Positions 1-15,000 of a stretch of 25,304 bases of DNA are shown in pieces; positions within the stretch are counted from its first letter, which is position 1, and each line of letters starts with the position of its first letter. The DNA comes from a virus. Location: IMG/VR virus record IMGVR_UViG_3300017746_000134, positions 1-25,304 of that record; one strand, 5' to 3'. The notes under the pieces are model-generated. The model saw nothing but the letters and a program-made list of their open reading frames with translations, was not told the DNA's origin and did no database searches. Made by a program: the position numbers and the translations under genes.

Positions 1-3000
1 ATAGCGTTTACGTCCTTCTTGTCAAACCTTCTTACTCTAGTTAAGTAGTCTCTTATGGTTGATTCTTTTACGTTATTGTCTCTACCTATCAAAATAATTT
101 CCGCAATATCCTCAACTGATCTACCCAATTCAGTAATGTTTTTTTCCCTTCTTGGTTCGGGATCAGTCATAGGTTTTATAACTTTATTACCTCTCTTTAA
201 ATAGTATCCAGATATCTCCCCCCTTCTATATCCCTCTCTGAAGTAAGAGGTCTTAAGTGTAAGGCCTAAACGAGCCGCTTCTTTGCGAAGAGCTCCAGGG
301 TTGTATAAATCACCAGGAAAATAATTACTATACCGATCCATGTTGTATTTTACCGCAAGCTTTTTAACTGGAGACATTTCTCTTCGTGGCTCTGGAGTAT
401 CTTCTTTTTTCTTTGAAGATTTTTTATCTGACCTACGCCTTGTACCTTCGTCTACAGCCACAGCTGCTGCTTCAGTATCGTATTGCCCCTCTACTACAGA
501 AACATTACGAACTGCATAATCAAGATTGAATTGTCCATCTTTGCCTTTCTGAACCAATACTTTACTTCCGGCTTCTCGATTTTTAGGTAAATGTAAAATT
601 GGTTGAGTTCCATCTTTTAATGCAATATGGTAAGGATAACTTGGGTGTGAGTCTTTTTTTACTTCTACTTCTCCATTAATTTCAATAATAGCATAAACAT
701 CACCAACATCTAAACCTTTTGTAAGTTGTTCAGCGGCTACATTAGCGATTAAATCTATCAATCCTTGAGCTGTGGTGGTGGTTTTTTTGGCAAGGGTCCT
801 GTCTGGTCTGCCTCCTAAAAATTCAGTTATTGCTGCTTGACTTTCTTTAGGAATATTTTTAGCTATTTCACCAACAATATCCTTAACTATAAATCCTCTT
901 TTTTCAAATGTACTTGTTGATGGATCAGTAAAGTATTTTTTTATATCTGTTTTTAAATCTTTAGCGCTTTGTCTAAGATTAATTTCTCCATCAGCTTTTC
1001 TAACTGTTGTAGAAACAGCGGACCTAAACAAAGATGGGCTAATTAAATTTTCATCTAACATAGTATTTAGTATTGCAAGTGTAGAGTTTACACCAGATGC
1101 ACTACTAACTAATTTAGAATCAGTGCCTTTAGTAAGGGTAAGAAATGCTTTACCACCATTCTGTTTTAATTGTTTATTTAATGCATTTGCAATAGTTTCT
1201 GCAGTGCCTTTTTTTCCTGACGCCCAAACATCGCCAAATTTAGTTACAAAAAAGACTCCACCCTCTCCTTCAAATATAACAATACCATCGTATTTTATTT
1301 CTCCTGCAAGCATATCATCAGGAGATGTAATTGTCGTAAACATGTTGTTTAAAAATAAAACATTTTCTGGCTGTGTAACACGACCCTGCTTTATATAGTC
1401 AACTATACTCTCTTGCTGGGTATAGCTAACTTCAAAAGAACCCTCTCTTCTGGTTTTTAAAGCATCGGCAGGATTATCAACTTTTTTTCCTCCTTTAAAT
1501 TGTGTTAATGGAGCTATTTCTTTTGATGTAATAGCCTCACCCTCTGCTGTTTTCTTAGCCACCACATTAAGCATGTCGATAATACCTTGGTCATCAGAAG
1601 TAAATTGTTTAAAAGAAATCCCTGCTTTACTTAAAATGCTTTCGACCCATTTACGAATTCTGCTTTTTGATGGAGCATCAAGCTGCATAAAATTGTCAGC
1701 AATGTATCCTACTATTACCGCCAATCGCTCTTCGTCTTGAATCGCTTCGTCGTAATTAGAAACAAAATCTTCTATTTGTCTTTTTATTTCAGGGGTTAAT
1801 CCTTTAGCTTTTGAAACGGCTTGCATCATTCTTTTAGTAATAGCCTGAGCAGCTGCATTAGTTTTAACTGCATTAAGTAATACCGCATGGAATACCTCAT
1901 GAGCCATTGTCCTGTTTGAAGCTTTAGGTAAATTTATATGTATAGTATTAGATGCGGGATCATAAGTTCCATTGCTAGTGTCTCCAGCTATTTTCTGATA
2001 GTTTTCACTATTTTCGTGAAGAACAATATTAACTTTTGGAAACACTTTAGATAGAGCTTTAACAGCTTTTACCGCTAGGTTTTTAATGCCTAGTACAGTA
2101 TCAGCGTCGTTATCCTCTTCTAAAGATTCTTCTAGAGCTCCTTTAGTAACCGTTATATTATCACTAATAGTCTCAACCTCTACCTCTACTGGCTCTCCTT
2201 CTAGGCTTTGTACTGTTTCTTTAGTTGACTCTCCTGGCTCTATGCTAACTTCGGTGTCGCTAGGACCTTCAACAAGCTCCTGGAAGTCAGTTACCTCATC
2301 AGAAACAACTGTATCAGAGGTAGATTCTGGAGCAACACCAATGCCTGCATCCAACAATTGTTGTCCACTATAAGTTAATCTTATTTTCTTTTTACCATCA
2401 ATCTCGATACTTCCCTCACCTGTAGGCTCTACCCCTTTAAGTGCATCAGGAACATTTTCTTTCGAGTCATATTCAAAAGAAAAAGATTTATTTGGATCAT
2501 CCACAATAATTTGTTCTACTTCAGCTTTATCTTTTTGTTGAGCATCATAAGTAGAGCTTACCATTCGTTCAAGCTCTTTCTTCATTTTTTCTTGCTCTAC
2601 CTTAAGGGGTTCAGCAAGCACATCATCTGTAGTTTCTATTTTTTTCTGAAGCTGATTGATGTTATATATCAACATTAAAGCACGCTGCTTCTGTTCTTTT
2701 GTGTAAGTATCAGGTATTTGATTTGCATTTATACCTTGTAGCTCTTGATAGGTTTGACGCTCCTTTGCTGCATCTTCTTCAGTATAGTTTTTAAACTCAC
2801 CCTCAGTTGCATTTATTTTTTGTTTTAGCCTAGTCTCAAACATTGCATCGTACTGAGGATCCCCTATCATTTCCTCAAACATATCATACATCTCAGAGGA
2901 AACAGCTTCCATGTTTGGACTAGTTGCTGCATTTGTTATCGCGCCAGGTACTGACATGATAAAACCTCCTATCATCTCTTGAGCCCCAGCCTTTAGAACT

Positions 3001-4967
3001 TCTGCTACGTACTCTCCTACCGTATCTGGAGTGTTAAACATTTCTTTCTCCTTGGTAATATTATAGATTTGTTTTACACTTAACTCTGCTATCTGCTGAG
3101 CAAAACCTGTTTCAAACTCTGCAGCTCCACCAGCACCTATAGTAAGTAAACCCCTTCCGATAGCACTATCAACATCTTGCCTAATAAATTCTCTGAAAGT
3201 TTTAACACTTGATCCTTTCGGAACTTGTCGCAATGCTTTTAAAACAAATTGATTTATTAATCCTTTTTGATTTATTAAATTTCTGAAACCATATGATTCT
3301 AATACACCCACTGCTATTCCGATGGGTGTGACTACCATAGCTTTTTCGTTTTCACTTATGTTATCAAACTCTGGGTTGTTCTCCATCTCTTCGGTAACAT
3401 TATCAGTTACAAGAGCATACATCTGAGCTGCTCTTTGTGCAAACCCTAGATAAGGTATAGGTACTGCTACCATTGCGGGAATAGATTCAGCAAGGCCTAG
3501 TATAGCGCCTCCCCAAAAACCTTCTTTCTTAGCGTCACTCCACTCTGGGGTTACATCAGAAGACCCTATCGCTAAGGTAAATCCTTTACGAGCAGCCTCT
3601 AGCCTTCCTTCACTCTCATCAAATTGATTAGCGTATTTAGAAAAGTTACTACGCCTACGACCTTTTACAGCTTTATCATAGGACTCAAAAAACTTCTCTC
3701 CTTTCTTTTTTAAATCTTTTATTTCAGATCTAATTTCTTCTGCAAAGGTAATATCCCTTTCAATTTCTTGAGCTCCCACAACCACGCCTGGAGTCATACG
3801 AGTGGTCTTACTAGTTCTTGCGATGTCTGTAAACTCGCTCAACAACTGTTCAGCTGTAACATCATCAAGTATTTCTTCTAACCTTAAGTCTATCAAACCT
3901 TTTTTTCTAGCTAGACGAACAACTTCTTCTTTATATTTCTCTTCAGATAGACCTGCTCTAGCTTCTGTTTCAGCTGCGTAATCTATCTTTTTTCTTTCTA
4001 TAGAAGAAGAGATAGCTCCTAAACCGTCTGTCAGTCCGTTCCAAATACCTTTGGCCCAGCTTCCTTGTTTTGCACGCATCTCCGTGTATCTCCCAGCTTG
4101 CTCATCTAAAAGCCTGCCTTGTTCATTAAGGTCTTTTTCTTGGGCTACCAAACTTATAAAAGCCTCTTGTAATTTTACTTTGTTTTCAGGTGTTTGTAAT
4201 TCAGGAGAGCTGTCAAATAAAAGTTTATTTTCTAAAAATTTAATTTTAGAATCATTGAATTGTTCTTCAACATCATTAATTTCTTTGACCCTCTGTTCTA
4301 CTTCTTTTTCAGTAAGTATATTTTTTTGTTCTTTGACCCAACCTTTTTCTGCATCTTTTATCCAGTTGCCTTCAGTTTTAATTTTATTCTTTTTTAAAAA
4401 GTCTTGAAGCTTTTTAGCGTTTTGTTTATTGAGTTCTTGTTGAACTTCAGGAGAATAAACATTAGTTCCAAAACCACCTGTAGTTACCTTTCGTTGTTTT
4501 AATGGTAACTCAAGCTCTTCTCTCTTGCCTTGCTCGTCTTTAGGGGCTAGAATTTTAACCGAATCCATTCCAGGAGCGTTCTCCTCAAAATCAAATCCAT
4601 ACTGCTTAAAATTTTCTTGTAATTCAGGAACTACAAACTCTTCTGATTTGTCTGTAAAAGATCCGTCTATAAGATTTAGACGCGCATCAAACTCTTCGGT
4701 TGTGTCGAACAAGTCTTGCGAGACCAAAGAACCATCCACCAATTCTGATTCCCCAGAAATTTCTTTTTTTTTTAACGGGTCCTGTATTCCTAATAAACTT
4801 TTAAAGTCATTAGGTGAGTCATTATAACCATCGTCTCTAAACAACTTATAACTGTAATCTAAAGCCTCAGTGTTCGTGCTTAAAAGATTTTTAAAATCAT
4901 CTATGCTGTCGCTATAACCATCAGCCTTAAATAAATCATACGCGTACTGTAATGCTTCCTCGTTCAT
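1..4967 (-). CDS. Giant internal/ejection virion protein with metallopeptidase motif (C-terminus beyond window)
   Basis: The frame is open without a stop from the ATG at 4967 to the left edge, at least 1655 codons. The start lies 2 nt after the stop of the 538-aa gene. Residues 4-63 are two tandem 30-aa repeats (EALxYxYxLF..DGY.DS..DFK.LL). Residues about 80-420 are charged and largely helical. Residues about 475-680 hold several hydrophobic, Gly/Ala-rich stretches that could be membrane-active. An acidic linker (about 890-960) leads to a gluzincin-like domain: NTIHINLP, then HEVFH at 1023-1027, with E1079 or E1080 in DEERLAVIVGYIADN as a candidate third zinc ligand. The C-terminal third resembles regions of large polyvalent phage proteins, and PEPRRE occurs at about 1525 and again at 1603. 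By size and by position last of three internal-protein genes it resembles the slot of T7 gp16. The role is inferred; the zinc motif is seen directly. Confidence 0.8.
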   Translation of the reverse strand, partial: MNEEALQYAYDLFKADGYSDSIDDFKNLLSTNTEALDYSYKLFRDDGYNDSPNDFKSLLGIQDPLKKKEISGESELVDGSLVSQDLFDTTEEFDARLNLIDGSFTDKSEEFVVPELQENFKQYGFDFEENAPGMDSVKILAPKDEQGKREELELPLKQRKVTTGGFGTNVYSPEVQQELNKQNAKKLQDFLKKNKIKTEGNWIKDAEKGWVKEQKNILTEKEVEQRVKEINDVEEQFNDSKIKFLENKLLFDSSPELQTPENKVKLQEAFISLVAQEKDLNEQGRLLDEQAGRYTEMRAKQGSWAKGIWNGLTDGLGAISSSIERKKIDYAAETEARAGLSEEKYKEEVVRLARKKGLIDLRLEEILDDVTAEQLLSEFTDIARTSKTTRMTPGVVVGAQEIERDITFAEEIRSEIKDLKKKGEKFFESYDKAVKGRRRSNFSKYANQFDESEGRLEAARKGFTLAIGSSDVTPEWSDAKKEGFWGGAILGLAESIPAMVAVPIPYLGFAQRAAQMYALVTDNVTEEMENNPEFDNISENEKAMVVTPIGIAVGVLESYGFRNLINQKGLINQFVLKALRQVPKGSSVKTFREFIRQDVDSAIGRGLLTIGAGGAAEFETGFAQQIAELSVKQIYNITKEKEMFNTPDTVGEYVAEVLKAGAQEMIGGFIMSVPGAITNAATSPNMEAVSSEMYDMFEEMIGDPQYDAMFETRLKQKINATEGEFKNYTEEDAAKERQTYQELQGINANQIPDTYTKEQKQRALMLIYNINQLQKKIETTDDVLAEPLKVEQEKMKKELERMVSSTYDAQQKDKAEVEQIIVDDPNKSFSFEYDSKENVPDALKGVEPTGEGSIEIDGKKKIRLTYSGQQLLDAGIGVAPESTSDTVVSDEVTDFQELVEGPSDTEVSIEPGESTKETVQSLEGEPVEVEVETISDNITVTKGALEESLEEDNDADTVLGIKNLAVKAVKALSKVFPKVNIVLHENSENYQKIAGDTSNGTYDPASNTIHINLPKASNRTMAHEVFHAVLLNAVKTNAAAQAITKRMMQAVSKAKGLTPEIKRQIEDFVSNYDEAIQDEERLAVIVGYIADNFMQLDAPSKSRIRKWVESILSKAGISFKQFTSDDQGIIDMLNVVAKKTAEGEAITSKEIAPLTQFKGGKKVDNPADALKTRREGSFEVSYTQQESIVDYIKQGRVTQPENVLFLNNMFTTITSPDDMLAGEIKYDGIVIFEGEGGVFFVTKFGDVWASGKKGTAETIANALNKQLKQNGGKAFLTLTKGTDSKLVSSASGVNSTLAILNTMLDENLISPSLFRSAVSTTVRKADGEINLRQSAKDLKTDIKKYFTDPSTSTFEKRGFIVKDIVGEIAKNIPKESQAAITEFLGGRPDRTLAKKTTTTAQGLIDLIANVAAEQLTKGLDVGDVYAIIEINGEVEVKKDSHPSYPYHIALKDGTQPILHLPKNREAGSKVLVQKGKDGQFNLDYAVRNVSVVEGQYDTEAAAVAVDEGTRRRSDKKSSKKKEDTPEPRREMSPVKKLAVKYNMDRYSNYFPGDLYNPGALRKEAARLGLTLKTSYFREGYRRGEISGYYLKRGNKVIKPMTDPEPRREKNITELGRSVEDIAEIILIGRDNNVKESTIRDYLTRVRRFDKKDVNA
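4779..4958 (-). repeat. Two tandem 30-aa coding repeats at the N-terminus of the giant protein
   Basis: Residues 4-33 and 34-63 of the giant protein align without gaps. Over the first 26 positions of each unit 17 residues are identical, with the pattern EALxYxYxLFxxDGYxDSxxDFKxLL. The DNA units (4869-4958 and 4779-4868) have drifted more than the protein, which suggests an old duplication kept for the protein fold, probably a helix-loop-helix docking unit. Function is not known. Confidence 0.85.
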
Positions 4968-4969
4968 TA

Positions 4970-6586
4970 TTAGTTATTTTGACCTTGGTTAAACTTACCA
5001 GCTCCACCTCCGGGATCTGTTTGCTGAGTAGTGTTGGCTGGTAAAAGTTTAAATGTTTTTATAAGGCTTTCATTAGAACTATTCAGTATAACAAAATCTT
5101 TAATTAATTTTTTCAAATTTTCATTAGACATGAATTTCTTATTTACAAGATCATATAAATCTATATTAAGTTTTTTATCACCTATAACTATATTTATTTC
5201 AGTAGGATCAGCTATGTTAGCTTGTTCTACTTCAGCATTGTATTTGCTAAGCAGAGGTTCGAGTTTTTTCTGAACTAACTGTTCTATTTGATTGACCCTA
5301 ACATTTCCTTCTGCGTCTTTTATATCCTCAGTAATTATATTAGAAAAATCTTTGTCAGCTTGTTGAATAATTTGTCCTATAATATCTCTTGACTCTTCTT
5401 CTTTTTCGCCTAGCTGTGCGTAGCCTAGCTTAATTCTTGCGTCCCCTAATCTTATTTGCTCCTTTTCATATTCACTCATTGGAGCTTTCCCAGCAGTCTC
5501 TTTAATATCCAGCTTAGTTCTGATCATATCACGCACACCATCTATAGCTGCCTTTTCTTGATCTACAGTTAGCCTAGGCTGATAAGCCCCGCTATTGTCT
5601 ACAAACATTTCTATACCTAGATTTTCATCTGGAATAGAATCCATTCTAGTATTAGTCCTTAAGTCAGTAAAGGTGCCGTCATCATTTTTAGTATACATGT
5701 AATATCCATCAGCGCCCATTGTATCTATAAGCATACTAGCTTTAGACATATCTGTCACCATAGAGGCTTCAATGCTTTTATTTACAGCTTCTCCAAATTC
5801 GCTTAATACAGTCTCCCCGTCTTTTGTTTCAAACATTCTAGCAAACGCATCTTCCTTAGTTTTAATATTGGGATCAGTAGCTTGCAATACCTCTATTCTT
5901 GTTCCTAAAGATTCCGCAAGTCGAGTGGCCTGAACATCTGACTGATACCGGTCTACTTGTCTGTTTATAATTCCTTCCGCAGTACCAACGCTCATTAAAG
6001 ACTTGTTTACGCCATCTATTTTTTTAGTATTCTCATAAGTATTAGGATCACCATCTTCTATAGTACTTGCTAAAAAAGCTTCTCCAGTTATGGGATCAAT
6101 ATAATAATCAGTAGATCCTGGGGGTCCAAACCTTTCAACGGATCCCATAAGCATAGCTTCAATCTCACTGCCAACTGGGGGTTTGCCATCTATAGATTGA
6201 AGTCTTTTCATCCCTGCCTCATAGTTATCTTGATACTGTTTAGATAAAGTAAATAGTTTTTTAGTAGATGAAAGTCCTGTATTTGTTCTTGAGTTATATT
6301 CTTTTAAAGATATAGCACCAGACTTTAATAGTTTTTGATTAGCTAAAGCAATAGCTGAAGCTTGCTCTGCATAACTAGAGATACGATCATTTTCTTTTGA
6401 GTAAGCTCCTTGAGGTTTATTTGCTATGTCCTCTAAATTAGTAAGAACTGCATTATCAATATCTACCCTTTGCTGTTCGCGCTCCCCTTCTATTCTAGTT
6501 ATATCGTCAGTAATGCCTTTGGTGATTGCTCTCCAATCAACTATGTCTTTACCTTCTCTAGATTTATACTTATAGTACGTTGCCAT
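4970..6586 (-). CDS. Internal virion (ejection) protein, 538 aa
   Basis: This is a hydrophilic, mostly helical protein with no signal peptide or membrane segment and long charged stretches. It begins MATYYKYKSREGKDIVDW, an opening I associate with internal virion proteins of phages infecting marine Bacteroidetes. It ends in a Gly/Gln/Asn-rich tail (GGGAGKFNQGQNN). It starts 10 nt after the 220-aa Ala/Gln-rich gene and stops 2 nt before the giant gene, so the three are probably co-transcribed and perhaps translationally coupled. The layout (small hydrophobic-headed protein, mid-size protein, giant protein) parallels T7 gp14-gp15-gp16, whose products are injected with the DNA. The middle position suggests a gp15-like tube-forming role. 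That assignment rests on order and composition; I recognise no catalytic motif. Confidence 0.6.
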   Translation of the reverse strand: MATYYKYKSREGKDIVDWRAITKGITDDITRIEGEREQQRVDIDNAVLTNLEDIANKPQGAYSKENDRISSYAEQASAIALANQKLLKSGAISLKEYNSRTNTGLSSTKKLFTLSKQYQDNYEAGMKRLQSIDGKPPVGSEIEAMLMGSVERFGPPGSTDYYIDPITGEAFLASTIEDGDPNTYENTKKIDGVNKSLMSVGTAEGIINRQVDRYQSDVQATRLAESLGTRIEVLQATDPNIKTKEDAFARMFETKDGETVLSEFGEAVNKSIEASMVTDMSKASMLIDTMGADGYYMYTKNDDGTFTDLRTNTRMDSIPDENLGIEMFVDNSGAYQPRLTVDQEKAAIDGVRDMIRTKLDIKETAGKAPMSEYEKEQIRLGDARIKLGYAQLGEKEEESRDIIGQIIQQADKDFSNIITEDIKDAEGNVRVNQIEQLVQKKLEPLLSKYNAEVEQANIADPTEINIVIGDKKLNIDLYDLVNKKFMSNENLKKLIKDFVILNSSNESLIKTFKLLPANTTQQTDPGGGAGKFNQGQNN

Positions 6587-6596
6587 TATTTATTTT

Positions 6597-7259
6597 TTAA
6601 TTACCTCCGCGTATTAAACCTGTAACTCCTTGAAATATTTTTCCAAAAAATCCATCTTTTTGAAACATCCCTTTATCGTCAGCCTGTCTCGCTTTTCGAT
6701 TAGCTACTCTAGTTTCTTTATCTTTTCCATATAATTCTTGAGCGCTTTGTAACCCCGTAGTAATGTCCCCTAAGCCTTGAACGCCTGCCGTTATGGCCGA
6801 TGCTTGATTTTTAGCTGCATCTGCAGCCGCTTGTTGAGCGCCTTCAGCTTCTTGCAAATCCAAAGTAGCTTTCATTGTAGATAATCTAGACTCTTCGCCT
6901 GCTACTGTACGTTCTAACTTCTCTAAGCTATCAATCTGTCTATTAGTAATATCTTGTTCGCCTTGCTGCATTCCAAGCATAACTCTTCCTGCGGTAGCTG
7001 CAGCGCCTCTTCCGGCCTCTTGACCTGCTTGTACCAGCTGTTGACCTACGCCAGCTAAAGCGTCACGCTCTTGCTCAAATGATTTAAGATTAATATCTAA
7101 ACCTTCATAAAAGTTTTGTTCTAACTGTGCCCGTGCCGCAGCCATTGCTTTTTCAGCATCCGCTTCGGCTTCTTGTTGTAGTTTATTTTGTTTTGAGGCT
7201 TGAAGAAAATTCATTGCTACACCCCCTGCGCCTATAACTGCACTAGTAATTGCTGCCAT
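6597..7259 (-). CDS. Small internal virion protein, Ala/Gln-rich, gp14/gp7-like
   Basis: The 220-aa protein starts with a hydrophobic segment (residues about 2-19, ending NFLQASKQNK). A long Ala/Gln/Glu-rich coiled-coil follows (about 22-175). It ends with a basic stretch and an amphipathic Phe/Gly segment, GFFGKIFQGVTGLIRGGN. A hydrophobic head on an Ala/Gln-rich coiled coil is typical of the smallest ejection protein of short-tailed phages (T7 gp14, P22 gp7), which inserts in the outer membrane. The ATG lies 1 nt after the GNAT-like gene stop (TAATATG), so coupled translation is likely. The role is inferred from composition and from its place before the 538-aa and giant proteins. Confidence 0.6.
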   Translation of the reverse strand: MAAITSAVIGAGGVAMNFLQASKQNKLQQEAEADAEKAMAAARAQLEQNFYEGLDINLKSFEQERDALAGVGQQLVQAGQEAGRGAAATAGRVMLGMQQGEQDITNRQIDSLEKLERTVAGEESRLSTMKATLDLQEAEGAQQAAADAAKNQASAITAGVQGLGDITTGLQSAQELYGKDKETRVANRKARQADDKGMFQKDGFFGKIFQGVTGLIRGGN

Positions 7260-7693: not shown

Positions 7694-8488
7694 TTAAGGA
7701 TTGCTTTTAGCTACTTGAGACTCTACAGCAAACAGCTCTGTTGCTATTGTTGCAGTATTCTGAAGTACAAACTTCATGTAGTGACCTAACAGTCCATGAG
7801 ATTCAGCCTCTTGATTTTTAATATATAAAATAAAAGAGTCTTGAAGAGTAGGAGCTGCGCCTCCAGCCACCGTTGCGTCCACTGTAATCCTGTTTATATT
7901 ATTAACCAGATCAATTTCTATAGCTGTTACCGTGCCCACAAGTGTTGGACCTGTATAGGGAGGGTTTGCAGAGTATAGACTGTCCCCTATACTTATAATG
8001 TTACCTATGTTTATGGTAGTAGCAAAGTTTATAATCGGAGTATTGGCAGTTCCAGTTACCGATAAGCTTTGAGAGATACCATTCATTGATCGTAACGCAT
8101 ACTCTGTAATAGCTGCGGGGTCACCCCCTGAACTTCTGATGTAAGCAAACCAGTCCCCTTCTTTTTGAACAAACCAAGTGTAATCAATAAGGCCTGTGTT
8201 AGGAAGGTCTGTCTCAAGTGCTGCTGACCACGCTGTATCTGATTCTAAGTTTACAGTTTTAAATATTTTATTAGTTATAGGGTCATCATTAAATACACTA
8301 GTTATTTCTGAGAAGCCCTGAACGCCATAGTAGTTGTTTCTGACTTCGTTACTATTGTGCTGAAATATATTTCCACCAGAAAAAGAATACAAGTAGTTAT
8401 TTAAGCCTACTAAATACTCAGGCATGTATGAATAAAAAGAAGGCCACCCGTTAGAGTTTTCACTGTAGGTAAGAGTATAGTCTGGCAT
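7694..8488 (-). CDS. Tail-associated structural protein with muzzle-like GWxSFYSYxPE domain
   Basis: The 264-aa protein opens with NGWPSFYSYMPE (13-24), then LNNYLYSF.GGNIFQHN, NNYYG and VFNDDP..NKIFKTVN. It closes with SHGLLGHYMKFVLQN and ELFAVESQVAKS. From memory, this motif series occurs in large neck/tail structural proteins of many marine and Bacteroidetes phages, usually as part of one long polypeptide. In between (about 145-215) is a beta-rich insert resembling fibre modules. Here it is a separate gene placed after the glycosyltransferase, about 3.5 kb downstream of the 1908-aa muzzle-like gene, and may be a detached part of that complex. The ATG follows a TAAATTTG box by 19 nt. There is no signal peptide or membrane segment. 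Confidence 0.6.
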   Translation of the reverse strand: MPDYTLTYSENSNGWPSFYSYMPEYLVGLNNYLYSFSGGNIFQHNSNEVRNNYYGVQGFSEITSVFNDDPITNKIFKTVNLESDTAWSAALETDLPNTGLIDYTWFVQKEGDWFAYIRSSGGDPAAITEYALRSMNGISQSLSVTGTANTPIINFATTINIGNIISIGDSLYSANPPYTGPTLVGTVTAIEIDLVNNINRITVDATVAGGAAPTLQDSFILYIKNQEAESHGLLGHYMKFVLQNTATIATELFAVESQVAKSNP

Positions 8489-8515: not shown

Positions 8516-9739
8516 CTAAAAATAACTGACCACTTTATCACCCCAACCATGTGACGCGCTATAAGGCCACATAAGATACCTATAAGGGACTTGTCCAGCC
8601 AAGCTTCTGACTACAGTCATGTAAGGATTGTTAAGCGATTTAAGGGTCTTAATCTCTTCTTTTGTTATAGTGTCATGGTGAACTACTATTCCATTGCTAT
8701 CTTCGAATACAAGCACTCCAAAAGCGCAATCCTCATATAAAAAGTCATGCTTATTAATCTTAACATAATAATCTTTAGTTTGGTGGTATATAGAATCTCC
8801 TTCTGTACCAGGAGGTGGCAAGTTCTGTTGACATCTATGTGTTATAGTCTGATCTTTAAATTTTATTCCAGCATACAGTTCATAATCCTCTAAGGTTCGC
8901 TCTTCTCCAAGATCATACTCTTTAAAGGTATTCTTATTGCAAGGAGAACACACCTCTCCGTTTACTCCTAAGAGTTGTCTTGTTCTTGCTTTTGATTGAT
9001 TATCTCTTTCAAACCATTTCTTATGATCGTCCCAATGTTTAGCCCTGCCCTCACGCGTATACTCATGCCATACTATTGGTTTATGTGGCGCAAACAAATC
9101 GTAGCCATGCGTGTAAGCCCTGACTGATATAGATATTTCTTCTCCATAGAAATACATAAGCGGATCATGAGGAACCTCTTTACAAAACTGACCCAATGTA
9201 AAAGCAAAGTGTCCAGAGTAAAACCTTGAGGGGACAGGAACAATACTTTTTGGCATTGTGTATGGGTGAAAAAGAGCTACGCCATCTTTCCACGTATTCA
9301 CTTTCATACCGTATACAGTTTCATTTTGTTCAATAGGTTTATTAATATGGTATGCCGGGCAGTATGAAGTAAGCAAAGGTTTTTTAAAGCCCTGCTTCTG
9401 AAGCCTAGCTATAGTACTAATACATTCACTGTCCCACCCCTCAATAAACCTATGATGCGAATCTAAATGAAGAGTATAGTCCTCTCCATTATAGTGTTGT
9501 TGTATCTGATTACGTGCCCAGCAAGTGCCTTGAGCCTCTGTGTGTGGTATCTGTATTACTATAAACCTTCCGTCTTCAGCAAACTGATCAAGTCGGTCCC
9601 ACTCATCTTCTTCGGCATACTGGTGAGCTATGCATATTTTTAAATTCTCTGGATGATGAGCTTTCTCAATAAGATCTTTGATGGTAGGTATAAGCTCAGG
9701 ATCACGATAACTCGCAATCTGTACAAATATAGATTTCAT
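8516..9739 (-). CDS. GlcNAc-type glycosyltransferase (GT60-like)
   Basis: The 407-aa protein begins SIFVQIASYRDPEL (3-16), the opening strand and loop of the Pfam 'Glycosyltransferase (GlcNAc)' family, which includes Skp1 GlcNAc-transferases. CWARNQIQQ (73-81) and the metal/nucleotide-sugar motif LHLDSHHRF (90-98, with D93-S94-H95 in the DxD position) follow. FYGEEISISVRAYTHGYDL and a WHEY segment follow in the middle. The last 95 residues are less familiar. It likely transfers GlcNAc or a related sugar from a UDP-sugar. The enzyme is soluble, with no signal peptide. It lies between the cysteine-rich appendage gene and the 264-aa tail protein gene, so the target may be a virion protein, though host surface glycans or a host protein cannot be excluded. 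Confidence 0.82.
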   Translation of the reverse strand: MKSIFVQIASYRDPELIPTIKDLIEKAHHPENLKICIAHQYAEEDEWDRLDQFAEDGRFIVIQIPHTEAQGTCWARNQIQQHYNGEDYTLHLDSHHRFIEGWDSECISTIARLQKQGFKKPLLTSYCPAYHINKPIEQNETVYGMKVNTWKDGVALFHPYTMPKSIVPVPSRFYSGHFAFTLGQFCKEVPHDPLMYFYGEEISISVRAYTHGYDLFAPHKPIVWHEYTREGRAKHWDDHKKWFERDNQSKARTRQLLGVNGEVCSPCNKNTFKEYDLGEERTLEDYELYAGIKFKDQTITHRCQQNLPPPGTEGDSIYHQTKDYYVKINKHDFLYEDCAFGVLVFEDSNGIVVHHDTITKEEIKTLKSLNNPYMTVVRSLAGQVPYRYLMWPYSASHGWGDKVVSYF

Positions 9740-9774
9740 TAGATTTAATTTTATGTACTAAGATAATCAATTAA

Positions 9775-12009
9775 TTAAAATCCAAACCCTCCTCCTGTAC
9801 ACTGGCTATTATTACATCCTGAAGATGTAATTATTTGTATTACGTCTCCTTGAGAAGCAGCGGTAGTTGTGCCCTGAATAGTGCCACAAAAAGTCTGTCC
9901 TGTATTAGTTCTAAAAAACACTACAGTTGAAACAGCTAATGAAGCTATATATGAAATTCTATAACTCACAAAAGTACCACACGTAGTAATTAGATAAGTA
10001 AATGTGGAGACATCTTGTGTTATTTGTCCTCCAACAATTAATGTTATATCAGAGTCTTGAGTAATACTTGTAGGATTAAATGTAACACTTGAATTAGCTA
10101 TACTAAATCCATCTGTAACTAAAATACTTGAGTTAAAAGTTGTAGTATCTAAAGGCGAAGGTCCTGTAACAAAAGATCCAATAGTGTCACCTATCAAATT
10201 ATACCCCACACCCAGAGTGCTTCCAGTGATATTATTGTCAATTGATGTTATAGTTCCAGTAATATTTTGAGGAGCTGAACTACAAGTAGTTGTTACTCCA
10301 GTAAATTGAGCTCCATTCCAATACCTAGATATTTTTGAGCCTGAGCTAGTGAATGCATAGGTTCCAGCATTTGCATAATCTGATGTTCCACAAGAGTTTT
10401 GAGTTTTCCAAATTGCAGTCACTGCACTAAAATTATTATTTGCATTTCCAAAAACAGTTGTATTTCCTCCAGAAGGACATACGTCTGTAGCTTGATTATA
10501 TTCTACACTATATGCATAACAATCAACGGTAGGAGTACACGCTGAACTATCACCAGTGCAGCCGCTAAAAGTTTGTGTTATAGTATTGTTTGTAGAGGTA
10601 GCTGTAGAATCACCTGTTATAACATAACAAGTAGTTCCTGTATTGCTTGTATGAATTGAATCACCTATACTAGCACTTCCAGTTGTTTTAACCACTATTT
10701 CTCCTCCTCCAGTGCAAAGCTCAGCAGTGAAATAGGAATTAGGATCTGTGTTAGCTGGTGGTGCTGATCCTCCAGGACATGAGCCTTGTGGATCTTCTGT
10801 TATTGTACCACCAAGGCTTAAAGAACTATTTTGGTAACACAAAGACCTTTCTTCGTTAGGGGAAAGTGATACATTGTTATAAGAAGAACCAGCACAATCA
10901 GTATAACTGTATGTACCTCCAGAGCCACCGCCATTAAGTATAGATAAGGTGCATCCAACTCCAGGACAAGGAGATGTAATGGTATTGGTTGTAGTTCTAG
11001 TAGTTTGGCTAACTAATCTATAACAACCCGAAGCTGCACTTATTTGTGTTTCGTCACCTATTTGTCCAGAACCTAATTGCACATCGTATTCATTACTAGA
11101 GTTTGTTATGTCTCTAGCTACAAAGGAGTTATTAGGAGGAGGAACTACAATACAAGGATTAGTTCCGCTTGTACATCCAGTATAAGCTGTCCCATCATAC
11201 ACCCCACCAAATGTGGTATCTGATCCTAATCTTTGAGAGTTAATCTGGTAACACGTTGTTGATCCATTAATTTTTACTGAGGTTGTTCCCTCATTAAAAG
11301 TTGTTCCAACAGGCGCTTGAATAACAAGCGTATTATTAGGGTTGTTACACTCCTGAGCAAACCAGTAAGTAAATTGAGGCGGCACTGCAGGGCACGCAGC
11401 GTCTGCTGTTAAAGCTAAGCCATTCTCTACTAAAGGTATGCCTGAGCTAAGAGTGGTAACTGGAGCGGCATTACTATACGAATAGTACGCGTTTGAATTT
11501 GTATTTAGATAAATAAACTGATTGCTTGTAGGGGGAATTGATGTGTAAATAGCACTTTTAGCTCCTGTACCCGCAGACACTGGACACAAATTAAGAAGAT
11601 AATATTCCGCAGGTGTTCCTGGATCTGGCACACAAACGCCTGATATTGTATTTGCCGTACCATTTACCGCCAAAGAATCAATAAGCCAACAGTTAGAATT
11701 AATGCTAGTTGTAACCTCTTGACCTACTGCAAAATTATTCTTTAATACAACATGGTCTTGAGTACCCGTAACTTTATCTGTAATTTTAAACGCATTATTG
11801 GCTGCTGGCGTAGGATCGGGAGAAGGCTTACTACACGATGGACAATCTTGTGGCGGGTCTAAAACTCCATTAACTTGTTGACGGGCTGTGACACCGCCCA
11901 TTTGATAAAACCCATCAGCTGCAAGGGTGGTTAAAGCCGCATCAGTATAGACAGCAGTAGCTTTTGCAAAATTAAAAGTGTCTATGTAGTATATATCAGC
12001 TTGAGCCAT
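9775..12009 (-). CDS. Cysteine-rich modular virion protein, probable receptor-binding/tail appendage
   Basis: The 744-aa protein is rich in Thr, Ser, Asn, Gly and Cys and contains almost no helix. Residues 1-60 (IYYIDTFNFAKATAVYTD ... GFYQMGG, ending CPSCS) form an N-terminal unit I have seen at the head of marine phage virion proteins. A Pro-rich linker (61-70) leads to about six degenerate modules of 50-80 residues (about 71-510). Each has the rough order aromatic strand, CxxxxxxxV, GDxxxx, G..CYxI, then a later Cys. The last part (about 515-744) is Thr/Ser/Ile-rich beta structure ending CTGGGFGF. The gene begins 20 nt after the muzzle-like gene, whose own C-terminus carries related modules. 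Composition and repeats point to an exposed, host-contacting protein. The exact role is inferred. Confidence 0.6.
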   Translation of the reverse strand: MAQADIYYIDTFNFAKATAVYTDAALTTLAADGFYQMGGVTARQQVNGVLDPPQDCPSCSKPSPDPTPAANNAFKITDKVTGTQDHVVLKNNFAVGQEVTTSINSNCWLIDSLAVNGTANTISGVCVPDPGTPAEYYLLNLCPVSAGTGAKSAIYTSIPPTSNQFIYLNTNSNAYYSYSNAAPVTTLSSGIPLVENGLALTADAACPAVPPQFTYWFAQECNNPNNTLVIQAPVGTTFNEGTTSVKINGSTTCYQINSQRLGSDTTFGGVYDGTAYTGCTSGTNPCIVVPPPNNSFVARDITNSSNEYDVQLGSGQIGDETQISAASGCYRLVSQTTRTTTNTITSPCPGVGCTLSILNGGGSGGTYSYTDCAGSSYNNVSLSPNEERSLCYQNSSLSLGGTITEDPQGSCPGGSAPPANTDPNSYFTAELCTGGGEIVVKTTGSASIGDSIHTSNTGTTCYVITGDSTATSTNNTITQTFSGCTGDSSACTPTVDCYAYSVEYNQATDVCPSGGNTTVFGNANNNFSAVTAIWKTQNSCGTSDYANAGTYAFTSSGSKISRYWNGAQFTGVTTTCSSAPQNITGTITSIDNNITGSTLGVGYNLIGDTIGSFVTGPSPLDTTTFNSSILVTDGFSIANSSVTFNPTSITQDSDITLIVGGQITQDVSTFTYLITTCGTFVSYRISYIASLAVSTVVFFRTNTGQTFCGTIQGTTTAASQGDVIQIITSSGCNNSQCTGGGFGF
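10480..11799 (-). repeat. Degenerate cysteine modules in the 744-aa protein
   Basis: About six protein-level repeats are recognisable by the recurring core GD/VGxxxxxxx..G..CY/CW-x-I followed some 15-25 residues later by another Cys. Examples are SNCWLIDS, TTCYQINS, SGCYRLVS and TTCYVITG. Boundaries are approximate because the units are strongly diverged. Confidence 0.6.
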
Positions 12010-12029
12010 TGTATAAAATTAATTAATTT

Positions 12030-15000
12030 TTAACATAAAGAGAATGATATTACTCTTCCGTTATTTCCTATTTGCACCCATCCTTCCATAAAACCTGCTT
12101 GAGCTTTTTTAGTTCCTGTAGCCGGTGCTCTAAAACCAAAGTACTTGTTATTTCCATTAAATGGAGTATTGAAGTTTGAATCGATAAAAAATAAAACATC
12201 CCCGTTAAATAAATTATTAGTTGTTGTTATCGATGTAAACACAGGATTGCTACAGTATATCGTATTACAAGGTTCTAATTGAGACGAACTATCTGCGCCA
12301 TTATTTTGTCTTTGATTAAACATCCAAATAGGGTTATCAGTAGAATCGCTTGGACAGTTTACAGGGTCATTACATGCGGATGCTTCTCCTACAATATCAC
12401 CGCTAGCTCCATCACCCCAATTTACTATTTCTATTTGAGCGCATTTTCTTATACTTACATTTGATCCGCTTAAATTTATTTCATCATAATAAACAAAATT
12501 ACCAACACTAAATAAACCTAATGAAGTCTTTCCTGATAAGAATACTCTTGTTCCACTACTACCACACTGAATAGCTGAGTAGTTATATTGTTCACACGCA
12601 GATCCTGCTGTTACAGTACCATTAGTTCCTGATGTTCTTACGGGTATATTCTGAGCACATTTTACAACTGACTTTCCGCCTCCAACTGTTTCTTGTAATT
12701 GAACCCCATTACAACTCTCCCAAGTAAATATATTGTCAGATCCTCCACAAGATGAACCTGCCGTTACCGTACCTGTACTTGGAGTGGTGGTTGGTATTGT
12801 TGTCGAACATACATCCACAGCGTCTCCAGCGGGTAATGAAGCTATAAAATCTGGGTTGCCATCACAATCTGTAAAGTCAATTCTTATAGTGTCCGCATTA
12901 GCAACAACATCATAAGTAGTACAAGTAGACGGTGATGCTAAAGTATAAGAGTTACAGGCTAACGGAGCTGGTGTAACGTCTGGTCCAGGAGTAGGAGTAG
13001 GCTCTACGTTACATCCCACACAACAAACATCATTTAAATCTACGTTAGAATAACATAGTTGTACTTCTGTAGAATTTCTATAATCATAAATCAGATATAA
13101 ATTGTCTCCTGTATTTCCAGAAGGCATTGTAAAGGTTGCGGTAACCTCCGGAATATTAAATTGTAAAGGCGTAACATTAGTTGATGCAGCAAGTAAAGCT
13201 ATTATGTCTGATTGTATAAACTCTCCATATACAGTAGCTGTTCTTAAAAACCTAAAGTTGTTAGTGTCACGTTTAAAATTGTAATTATCAAATCCAATCT
13301 TGTTACTACCTATAATAACCTTTGCACCATCGTCTGGTATTACACCAGCTCCTTGACCACCAGTTAAACTTAAAAACTGACTAACTAAAGGGTTGTTAGT
13401 TCCATTTGTAAATTCCATTAATTCACTATGAAGAGGAGAATTAAACAATCCATCTTGCCACCTGTACTCATTGTGTATAAACTTTCCTCCATCTGCATTA
13501 CTTCCTATACCCACTTGAATGATTGTAATTTCATCAGGCTCTGGGCAGTTAACTGTTACCTCAATGGTATCAGCTGTAATGCTGTTTGAAGAAACCACTA
13601 TTGTCATGTCTTCAGCATATACTGAATTTTTAGCCACATTTAATATTCCATTAACGGAAGTAGTTACACTAGTAGAAGTTCCGTTATATAAGGCTGTAAT
13701 AGTGTACGTATTATTATTTGTAGAATCTTCAATTATTATTTCATTTCCTGAAGCGGCAGTTGAATTTGTTTCTGTAATCATTTTAACTAATCCTGCATTT
13801 GGATTTGGCGTATCCGCCTCAGTTATAATATTGTCATTGCCGCCACTAGGAATAACATATTCTATTTCTACCGTACCGACCTCTTGAGTAACATCTACAC
13901 AATATGAAACCTGTTCACCTACTGGTATTGTTATGTTCCTTGAGCTACCGCAAAGGTCACAGTTACCTACAAATGGTAATGTAATACTGTTGGCAGACAG
14001 AACATACTCGTTCATATAAGGGTCAAAGCCCCCTATTTTCTGCGCATCAAAATTGTCATGGAATAAATCTCTAAACCAACCTCGCATTCCAGACTCTGAA
14101 ATTACAGTCAATGACTCTTGGTTATAAGCACCACCTTTTAACTGTATAACAGCGCCTCTTTGCTCATCTGTAAAAAACTTGTCGGCTCCAAACACTGCAA
14201 AGCTTTCAGGGTTTCTGCTTATACCAAACTCTTCTATTCTAGATATTTGTTGACCTAACACTTCTGGAACTGAAGTAAGGGATCCAGTGCCTCCTGCATC
14301 TGTAAGTAAATCTTTACCTGCTAGTACATAAGATATTTTATCTTCTTGTAAAGTAAGTATATCTGTTTTTCTAGAATGTAATTTTTGAATAGATCCAAAT
14401 GAATCTTCTAAGGTTTTGTAGTTGACAAGCCCTAGGTTAAACTCATTAAGTTTATTTACGTTTGATTCATCATTGTATACACCACTATAAGTTAAATCCG
14501 CAAACCTGTGCGCTTCTTTATATTCTTGTCCTGATGTTGTTGTAACTCTATTACCTAGCGCAAAGGCTTCACCTTTTACTGAGTCTCTTATGGTATAACT
14601 TTCAACTCCATTTCCAAAAGTAAAACAATCAAAAAATCCTGTGTCAACTATTGCAGAGTTTTTAGTTTGAACACGTTGATTTGCTTGTGTTCCTTGATGT
14701 TCTCCATTAGTATTAACATTAAAATTTAAATTATTCTCATACCATATATCAGGAGATGCATCTGAAGGTAGTGTTTCGAATACTACAACTCCGCCTTGAT
14801 TTGCTCGTTCAACTGTTATTTCTATTTCAGAATTTGAAGAGTTGCCGCCCCCAAATATTCCAGAACTTGTACAGCTTAATGTTCCTGTGGCTAAAAACCA
14901 TAAAGAATTATCTCCCCCATTAGAATTATCACTTCTCCAAAATTGATAATAATTTTTATCAAAACCCACATCTATATAGCCTGGTAATAATGCATTACTT

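What the first reader, a model, noticed from the sequence alone, without database searches (positions are those of the whole stretch)
1..4967. Giant ejection-type protein carrying a zinc-metallopeptidase motif
The unfinished reading frame of at least 1655 codons carries HEVFH at residues 1023-1027, preceded by an NTIHINLP strand and followed 52-53 residues later by E1079/E1080 in a helix, the arrangement of gluzincin peptidases. It is the last of three genes that mimic the T7 gp14-15-16 ejection set. In T7 the large ejected protein carries a transglycosylase. Here a peptidase could open peptidoglycan cross-links, mature other internal proteins, or act on host proteins after injection.
Basis: partly seen in the sequence, partly recalled or inferred. 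Interest (0 to 1): 0.75.

Follow-up and report, generated by a model that had tools for sequence, protein, structure and literature searches.

The report
Zinc-peptidase module in giant phage protein
A very large protein that this phage probably carries inside its particle and injects into its bacterial host contains a well-preserved zinc-peptidase domain, a new branch of a kind of giant multi-domain phage protein already described in 2017.

Summary
HEVFH lies at residues 1023-1027, a TIHIN strand precedes it, and E1079/E1080 start a helix. A near-identical second record shows a protein of 2,859 residues. In 104 distinct copies of the domain H, E, H and E1080 are kept in all 104. Two scans made with other parts of the protein agree: the domain is intact or absent as a whole. 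The predicted fold is the minimal zincin core. Fold neighbours include the HExxH domain of phage N4 virion RNA polymerase and the lethal-factor peptidase domain, only at Z about 6, and Foldseek gave no significant PDB hit. The gene is the last of a virion-cargo set; in the syntenic phage phi40:1 all three counterparts were found in virions by MS/MS, though its giant lacks the peptidase. I read it as a new clade of the zincin-like peptidases of phage polyvalent proteins (Iyer 2017), most likely cutting its own chain around ejection. Wall opening is unsupported. Additions: the following 300-residue domain has no Pfam family and had a zincin upstream in 37 of 37 judgeable loci; the window copy alone of 104 has V at a near-invariant E.

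The parts
3..4967 (-). Giant cargo/ejection-type protein, first 1,655 of 2,859 codons (cut by the contig end)
   Evidence: full length from L002, 2 substitutions in 1,655 residues
4758..4967 (-). N-terminal tag, residues 1-70: tandem duplicated unit followed by PLKKK
   Evidence: KKK within the first 110 residues in 62 of 80 distinct N-termini of relatives, background 131 of 1,853 windows; tandem repeat before KKK reached by at most 1 of 100 shuffles in 47 of 59
2508..3650 (-). N-terminal core, residues 440-820, conserved also in relatives without the peptidase; two hydrophobic stretches near 484-503 and 543-562
2121..2507 (-). Variable acidic linker before the peptidase, residues 821-949
   Evidence: sequence; no blastp match at E <= 1e-3 in the nine relatives tested
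1458..2120 (-). Zincin-like metallopeptidase domain, residues 950-1170
1932..1946 (-). TIHIN edge strand, residues 1008-1012
   Evidence: I1009, H1010, I1011 and N1012 kept in 42, 44, 41 and 44 of 45
1887..1901 (-). HEVFH, residues 1023-1027: proposed zinc ligands H1023 and H1027, general base E1024
   Evidence: H, E and H in 104 of 104
1728..1733 (-). E1079-E1080; E1080 is the proposed third zinc ligand
   Evidence: E1080 104 of 104, E1079 103 of 104
1716..1718 (-). V1084, at a column that is E in 102 of 104 copies, Q in one and V only here
   Evidence: the same V in the second record L002
540..1454 (-). Partner domain after the peptidase, residues 1172-1476, no Pfam family
4970..6586 (-). 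538-aa gp15-like/cargo gene
   Evidence: phrog_35506 (unknown function), E 1.5e-13; position
6597..7259 (-). 220-aa gp14-like virion protein
   Evidence: phrog_13764 virion structural protein, shared with phi40:1 gp099 and elemoF gp20

Best explanation
The gene encodes a virion cargo protein, packed in the capsid and ejected into the host ahead of or with the DNA (inferred from synteny). It is built from an N-terminal tag, a conserved helical core with hydrophobic stretches, and exchangeable modules. One module, residues 950-1170, is a zincin-fold zinc peptidase of the kind found in phage polyvalent proteins: H1023 and H1027 with E1080 hold Zn2+, and E1024 activates water. The likeliest use is limited proteolysis of its own chain, or of its ejected partner proteins, around ejection, so that the downstream modules are freed or activated; the acidic linker before the domain and the junction after it are the obvious places to cut. 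Shown here: the motif, its conservation, the predicted fold, the modular architecture, and (from a record's annotation) virion presence of the syntenic counterpart in a relative. Inferred: zinc binding, catalysis, and self-cleavage as the purpose. My estimates: a zincin-fold domain of a polyvalent-type cargo protein 0.87; catalytically active in most relatives 0.75; self or partner processing as the main role 0.45.
For: Catalytic residues kept in 104 of 104 distinct domains. Scan with the N-terminal core: 21 of 30 loci carry the domain, all 21 with intact HExxH (HEIFH, HEVFH, HEMMH, HEAFH or HEVMH); the other 9 have no domain match and no HExxH in the part held (5 of them cut off too early to judge), and no degenerate copy was seen. 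Scan with the partner domain: of 37 loci with upstream sequence, 35 have this zincin with HExxH and 2 have a different HEFGH motif upstream. Model with the order helix, strand, helix, two strands, HExxH helix, helices, Glu helix, in line with the zincin layout in Iyer 2017 (PMC5512222, passages). VIA rows whose ranges span both motifs: N4 vRNAP gp50 2159-2366, Z 6.1, rmsd 4.3, 160 aligned; lethal-factor peptidase domain 590-776 (1yqy), Z 5.9, rmsd 4.9, 133 aligned. N4 has HELVH at 2228 and a similarly placed NEFMAW glutamate at 2310. BFVD: 9 matches at E <= 1e-3, phage giants and a MuF protein of phi191 among them. Of 15 giant relatives scanned with Pfam, 14 with this zincin, single members match ART-PolyVal, LPD23, LPD38 and DUF6782. 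phi40:1 gp099, gp100 and gp101: structural proteins by MS/MS. Self-processing of such proteins is a proposal of Iyer 2017, resting on phage P1 DdrB being cut before packaging.
Against: Foldseek found no PDB match at E <= 0.001, and VIA Z of about 6 is in the range of common arrangements, tied with unrelated rows. No curated Pfam cut-off is reached by the window copy. The model's coordinates were not returned, so the distances between H1023, H1027 and E1080 were not measured. The window copy has V1084 where 102 of 104 copies have E, which may weaken it. N4 vRNAP carries a similar domain and is packaged unprocessed (Iyer 2017), so such a domain need not cut its own chain. No cleavage site or product is known. 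The one giant counterpart with stated MS evidence, phi40:1 gp101, has no HExxH. The 104-copy count rests on profile hits at E <= 1e-5, which could miss strongly decayed copies. One search does not name which of the 15 proteins carry ART-PolyVal and LPD38; one of the 15 (L109) lacks the zincin.
Confidence: 0.5

Rival explanations
1. The peptidase is an effector: after ejection it cuts one or a few host proteins, for example defence or regulatory proteins, and the partner domain helps to choose or sense the target.
For: Catalytic residues fully kept while neighbouring modules are exchanged; the partner domain had a zincin motif upstream in 37 of 37 judgeable loci and has moved between phages (87% identical to L013 where the zincin is 49% and the C-terminal part 39%); single giant relatives match ADP-ribosyltransferase and acetyltransferase families, which suit an effector set; Iyer 2017 lists this option.
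Against: No target is known; the domain sits in mid-chain and must be delivered through a narrow portal; weak fold similarity to toxin peptidases says nothing of the target.
Confidence: 0.3
2. The domain is a structural relic or a non-proteolytic HExxH enzyme, for instance an alpha-ketoglutarate-HExxH oxygenase, and has no peptidase activity.
For: [quoted passage not shown] V1084 in the window departs from the family.
Against: A relic would hardly keep H, E, H and E in 104 of 104; the weak sequence links include zinc peptidases such as IrrE, DUF5700, M78 and DUF6782.
Confidence: 0.13
3. The peptidase opens peptidoglycan cross-links for DNA passage, replacing the T7 gp16 transglycosylase.
For: Position of the gene and the need of such phages to pass the wall.
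Against: No wall-enzyme family listed for the full-length protein; I recognise no wall enzyme among the fold rows shown; the module is absent from complete relatives L109 and L117 that keep the core.
Confidence: 0.05

Closest known systems
Zincin-like MPTase domains of phage and plasmid polyvalent proteins (Iyer et al. 2017, PMC5512222)
   Same: HExxH in the first and Glu in the second conserved C-terminal helix, three-stranded sheet, variable insert between the helices, within a giant protein beside virion genes; single relatives match ART-PolyVal and LPD domains
   Different: No Pfam model reaches its cut-off on the window copy; I could not reach the paper's clade alignments, so whether this is one of its 12 clades is open; the partner domain matched no LPD model of Pfam
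C1 domain (2124-2375) of phage N4 virion RNA polymerase gp50 (9pnr; PMC12633501)
   Same: HELVH at 2228 and Glu 2310 resemble the window motifs; VIA Z 6.1 over 160 residues; gene next to the other virion genes gp51 and gp52
   Different: No RNA polymerase family found here; sequence link only marginal (hhalign probability 7)
Giant 'structural protein' of Flavobacterium phages elemoA-F (e.g. NC_055853 gp18, 3,694 aa)
   Same: Same zincin and partner domain in the same order, 30% identity over window residues 966-1464, same gene position
   Different: No blastp match at E <= 1e-3 outside that stretch; DUF3293 added
Cellulophaga phage phi40:1 gp099-gp101
   Same: Same gene order; gp099 in the same PHROG family as the 220-aa protein; all three annotated as virion proteins by MS/MS
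   Different: gp101 (1,691 aa) has no HExxH
T7 gp14-gp15-gp16 ejection proteins
   Different: No transglycosylase family found; the particle is crassvirus-like (PF25729). No direct comparison with T7 sequences was run

Membership tests
Gluzincin-type zinc peptidase (zincin fold) | HExxH in a helix | tested here: met
   104 of 104 copies
Gluzincin-type zinc peptidase (zincin fold) | third ligand Glu on a later helix | tested here: met
   E1080 104 of 104, helix 1079-1095
Gluzincin-type zinc peptidase (zincin fold) | acidic residue four after the ligand Glu (recalled for thermolysin-like enzymes, not universal) | tested here: not met
   V1084 in the window; E in 102 of 104 copies. N4 gp50 has W at the like place (sequence)
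Gluzincin-type zinc peptidase (zincin fold) | ligands converge in space | not testable with these tools
   model coordinates not returned; VIA ranges on N4 C1 and the lethal-factor peptidase domain span both motifs at Z about 6
Gluzincin-type zinc peptidase (zincin fold) | peptide cleavage | not testable with these tools
   needs an experiment
Phage polyvalent protein (Iyer 2017) | very large multi-domain chain beside late virion genes | tested here: met
   2,859 aa after the virion gene cluster
Phage polyvalent protein (Iyer 2017) | zincin MPTase with other modules exchanged around it | tested here: met
Phage polyvalent protein (Iyer 2017) | two or more recognised disparate enzyme domains in the same chain | tested here: inconclusive
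   recognised only in some relatives; in the window protein only the zincin is recognisable
Phage polyvalent protein (Iyer 2017) | packed in the virion and injected | not tested
   stated virion MS/MS only for the syntenic phi40:1 protein, which has no HExxH
T7 gp16-type ejection protein | transglycosylase/lysozyme domain | tested here: not met
   no such Pfam (E <= 1) or NCBIfam (E <= 0.1) match in the full-length protein
T7 gp16-type ejection protein | last of three consecutive ejection genes | tested here: met
   synteny with phi40:1
YTH/PUA-like domain (partner module) | fold | tested here: inconclusive
   7 best VIA entries are YTHDF1/2, Z 5.5-6.9, next 4.5, all below 8
YTH/PUA-like domain (partner module) | sequence match | tested here: inconclusive
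   no YTH or EVE model among the Pfam and PDB sequence matches listed

The most novel reading that the evidence does not exclude
The peptidase and the domain that follows it form one device: a phage-injected peptidase switched or aimed by a sensor domain of YTH/PUA-like fold that reads a nucleic-acid modification or a similar small mark, cutting host or phage proteins only in the right place or state.
Probability: 0.06. Interest if true: 0.85.

Novelty: new member of a known kind. Interest (0 to 1): 0.48.

Why it matters
What the peptidase domains of giant injected phage proteins cut is an open question: N4 vRNAP carries one but is packaged unprocessed, while P1 DdrB is cut before packaging (Iyer 2017, passages). 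This family has cultured members (the elemo phages of Flavobacterium sp. BAL314), relatives that keep the core but lack the peptidase module, and fully conserved catalytic residues, so a single-residue change in a laboratory phage could settle whether such peptidases process their own chain or attack the host. The partner domain gives a second, independent handle.

Tried and rejected
Pfam, NCBIfam and PHROGs on the giant protein: no family above cut-off for the zincin. For the window copy of the domain the best Pfam match was Tox-MPTase4, E 0.017, below its cut-off; among the 45 copies scanned, zinc-peptidase families (DUF5700 in 21, M78 in 7, M9_N in 6, DUF6782 in 5) are mixed with unrelated families such as DUF445 in 13, so these are hints only. 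Sequence profile against PDB: best was IrrE at E 0.032, with motif over motif, not significant; unrelated chains scored about as well. Foldseek against PDB: 233 matches at E <= 10, none at E <= 0.001, the top rows mostly unrelated. Several lethal-factor and edema-factor rows in VIA align to about residues 41-257, not to the peptidase domain, and are not counted as support. The VIA list also has tied unrelated rows (pyruvate:ferredoxin oxidoreductase, a designed binder). N4 C1 by profile comparison: hhalign probability 7.

The peptidoglycan idea was dropped for lack of any wall-enzyme family or neighbour. A gene-split argument for self-cleavage was tried: only L056 shows a split after the zincin, and L066 a similar one that may be a frameshift, so it is too weak to use. 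A literature search for phage, ejection protein, metallopeptidase and virion together gave no paper, and no paper on elemo virion proteomics turned up in two searches; the word 'structural protein' in the elemo records carries no stated basis. Partner-domain search against PDB sequences and Pfam found no family.

Selection effects: the first relatives scan used patterns that contain HE[IV]F or IHIN, found 127 relatives and kept the best 80, so its conservation count is biased; the scans do not use the motif. Some contigs recur in several scans; the 104 domains are distinct sequences out of 144 hits, but the 48 of 109 are not freed of repeats. Alignment A2 used 44 of 81 relatives after clustering at 85% plus the window. 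Of the 30 N-core loci, 5 of the 9 without the domain are cut off too early to judge (L101, L106, L115, L116, L122). Of the 40 partner-domain loci, 3 start inside the domain and were left out (L140, L147, L165). The scan of genome contigs gave one relative out of 109 pattern matches. That draft also gave the Pfam matches to relatives 'with the same zincin' without knowing the member; this is mended above.

Papers: of PMC5512222 I saw the abstract, outline, passages and one section; of PMC12633501, PMC10925440, PMC10172136, PMC13288928 and PMC8776804 passages only; all others as search listings.

Full report
What was checked. The minus-strand frame 4967..3 is open for 1,655 codons and runs off the contig. 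HEVFH is at 1023-1027, NTIHINLP at 1007-1014, E1079 and E1080 are as stated. It is the only HExxH; the expected number by composition is 0.003. A second IMG/VR record differs at two of 1,655 residues and carries the whole gene, 2,859 codons.

Conservation. An alignment of the domain from the window, L004 and elemoF found 127 relatives in IMG/VR, of which 80 were kept. 84 of the 91 loci then held have the domain, in ORFs of at least 1,147 residues. In 45 representatives A1016, T1020, H1023, E1024, F1026, H1027, F1068, Y1072, E1079, E1080, G1087 and G1143 are invariant. Because that scan used the motif, I made two that did not. With the N-terminal core, 30 loci were found: 21 carry the domain and all 21 have HExxH; 9 do not and have no HExxH in the part of the ORF held; three of the nine are complete ORFs (L109, L117, L121), L108 reads 877 residues past the core, and five are cut off early. 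With the partner domain, 40 loci were found; 37 show the upstream part, 35 have this zincin with HExxH and 2 have another motif, HEFGH. Over all scans 104 distinct domains, the window's included, keep H, E, H and E1080 in 104 of 104 and E1079 in 103. So far as these scans see, the module is either intact or absent, which speaks for function; strongly decayed copies could escape the E <= 1e-5 limit.

A departure in the window. Four residues after E1080 the family has E in 102 of 104; one copy has Q and the window has V1084. The same V is in the second record. The place is also non-acidic in N4 gp50 (NEFMAW) and in the second HEFGH region of MW202828 (REVMAI), so activity is not excluded, but at this place the window copy is unlike its family.

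Fold. AlphaFold2 on 45 sequences gave mean pLDDT 76.9 and pTM 0.61 (ten-residue means 66-96 up to residue 190 of 231, below 50 after it): helix, strand, helix, two strands, HExxH helix, helices, glutamate helix. This agrees with the layout that Iyer 2017 gives for zincin-like MPTases of polyvalent proteins (PMC5512222, passages). Foldseek against PDB had nothing at E <= 0.001. VIA-align on Foldseek's candidates gave Z up to 6.4; rows whose ranges cover both motifs include N4 vRNAP gp50 2159-2366 (Z 6.1, rmsd 4.3, 160 aligned) and the lethal-factor peptidase domain 590-776 (Z 5.9, rmsd 4.9, 133 aligned), with collagenase G/H, PPEP and selecase lower, but also tied unrelated chains. BFVD gave 9 matches at E <= 1e-3, phage giants and a MuF protein of phi191 among them. 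The N4 structure preprint (PMC12633501, passages) describes the HExxH-bearing C1 domain at 2124-2375; N4 gp50 has HELVH at 2228 and the glutamate at 2310. Together with the motifs I take the zincin fold as likely at about 0.87; the Z values alone would not do it.

Architecture. The giant proteins are mosaics. Window residues 440-820 match seven of nine relatives tested at 34-47%, including L006, which has no peptidase. L004 lacks the domain after the zincin. Fifteen giant relatives scanned with Pfam (14 with the zincin) showed ART-PolyVal, LPD23, LPD38, DUF6782, GNAT, DUF3293 and others, each in one or two members; LPD23 and DUF6782 are in L037, which has the zincin, while the output does not name the member for the others. 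This ties the set to polyvalent proteins. The following domain (1172-1476) is found in 48 of 109 zincin ORFs, repeats not removed. In the independent scan a zincin motif stands upstream in 37 of 37 judgeable cases; in 34 of the 35 with this zincin family it follows within 34 residues, L151 being the exception at 554. MW202828 has a distant copy beside its second HEFGH region (hhalign probability 89.6 for the partner, 43.7 for the zincin). The partner domain of L013 is 87% identical to the window's while the zincins are 49%, the cores 47% and the C-terminal parts 39% identical: this piece was probably exchanged recently. Its model is good (pLDDT 85.4, pTM 0.82). The best fold rows are seven YTH-domain entries (Z 5.5-6.9), next 4.5, with no sequence support; I treat this as a lead only.

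Context. Upstream lie a 538-aa and a 220-aa gene; the latter shares phrog_13764 with phi40:1 gp099 and elemoF gp20. In KC821612 (phi40:1) gp099, gp100 and gp101 are annotated as structural proteins on experimental MS/MS evidence, so the trio is a virion set in a syntenic relative, though gp101 has no HExxH. Maribacter phage Panino's giant (CDS0069) has none either. The 264-aa gene 7694-8488 matches a crassvirus muzzle C-terminal domain and the portal is 74.5% identical to MW202828, with cultured relatives on Flavobacterium, Cellulophaga, Tenacibaculum and Maribacter. The crassvirus atlas (PMC10172136, passages) describes large cargo proteins found by MS in that virion, so 'crassvirus-like cargo' fits at least as well as 'T7-like'.

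Mechanism. With the catalytic set fully kept and other modules exchanged around it, a working peptidase is likely. Iyer 2017 proposes self-processing before or after injection, or host attack, for such domains, citing P1 DdrB (cut before packaging) and N4 vRNAP (packaged unprocessed). Nothing here separates these decisively; I lean to processing of the protein's own chain or partners (0.45) over a host effector (0.30). Wall opening is unlikely (0.05).

Novelty. The kind is known since 2017. The family reaches no Pfam cut-off in the window copy, and neither this clade nor the partner domain showed up in the listings and passages I saw, but the clade alignments of the 2017 paper were out of reach. 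Hence: new member of a known kind, with a partner domain worth following.

Noticed in passing
window 4758-4967 and N-termini of relatives: Most giant proteins start with a tandem duplication of a short unit, of very different sequence between phages, ending in KKK: KKK in the first 110 residues in 62 of 80 against 131 of 1,853 background windows; tandem repeat reached by at most 1 of 100 shuffles in 47 of 59. It could be a cargo-loading tag.
   Followed up: partly
window 7694-8488 and 8516-17756: The muzzle gene of phi40:1 (gp97) corresponds to two separate genes in the window (12030-17756 and 7694-8488, PF25729), between which lie a 744-aa gene and a GlcNAc glycosyltransferase gene (PF11397, E 1.2e-72).
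   Followed up: partly
window 540-1454: Partner domain apparently exchanged between phages: 87% identical to L013 where zincin, core and C-terminal part are 39-49%; weak YTH-like fold.
   Followed up: partly
L037 residue 2131, L152 1522, L154 1532, L155 2013 and 2381: A further HExQH motif along the same giant chain; in L037 it falls in a weak DUF6782 metallopeptidase match, E 0.0006, below its cut-off.
   Followed up: no
L091: A contig of a metagenome-assembled 'Aliivibrio' genome carries the giant gene; probably a phage contig binned with the bacterium.
   Followed up: no
L121 6642-9524: A giant-gene homologue of only 961 codons that ends shortly after the N-terminal core, the shortest complete version seen among the N-core loci.
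   Followed up: no
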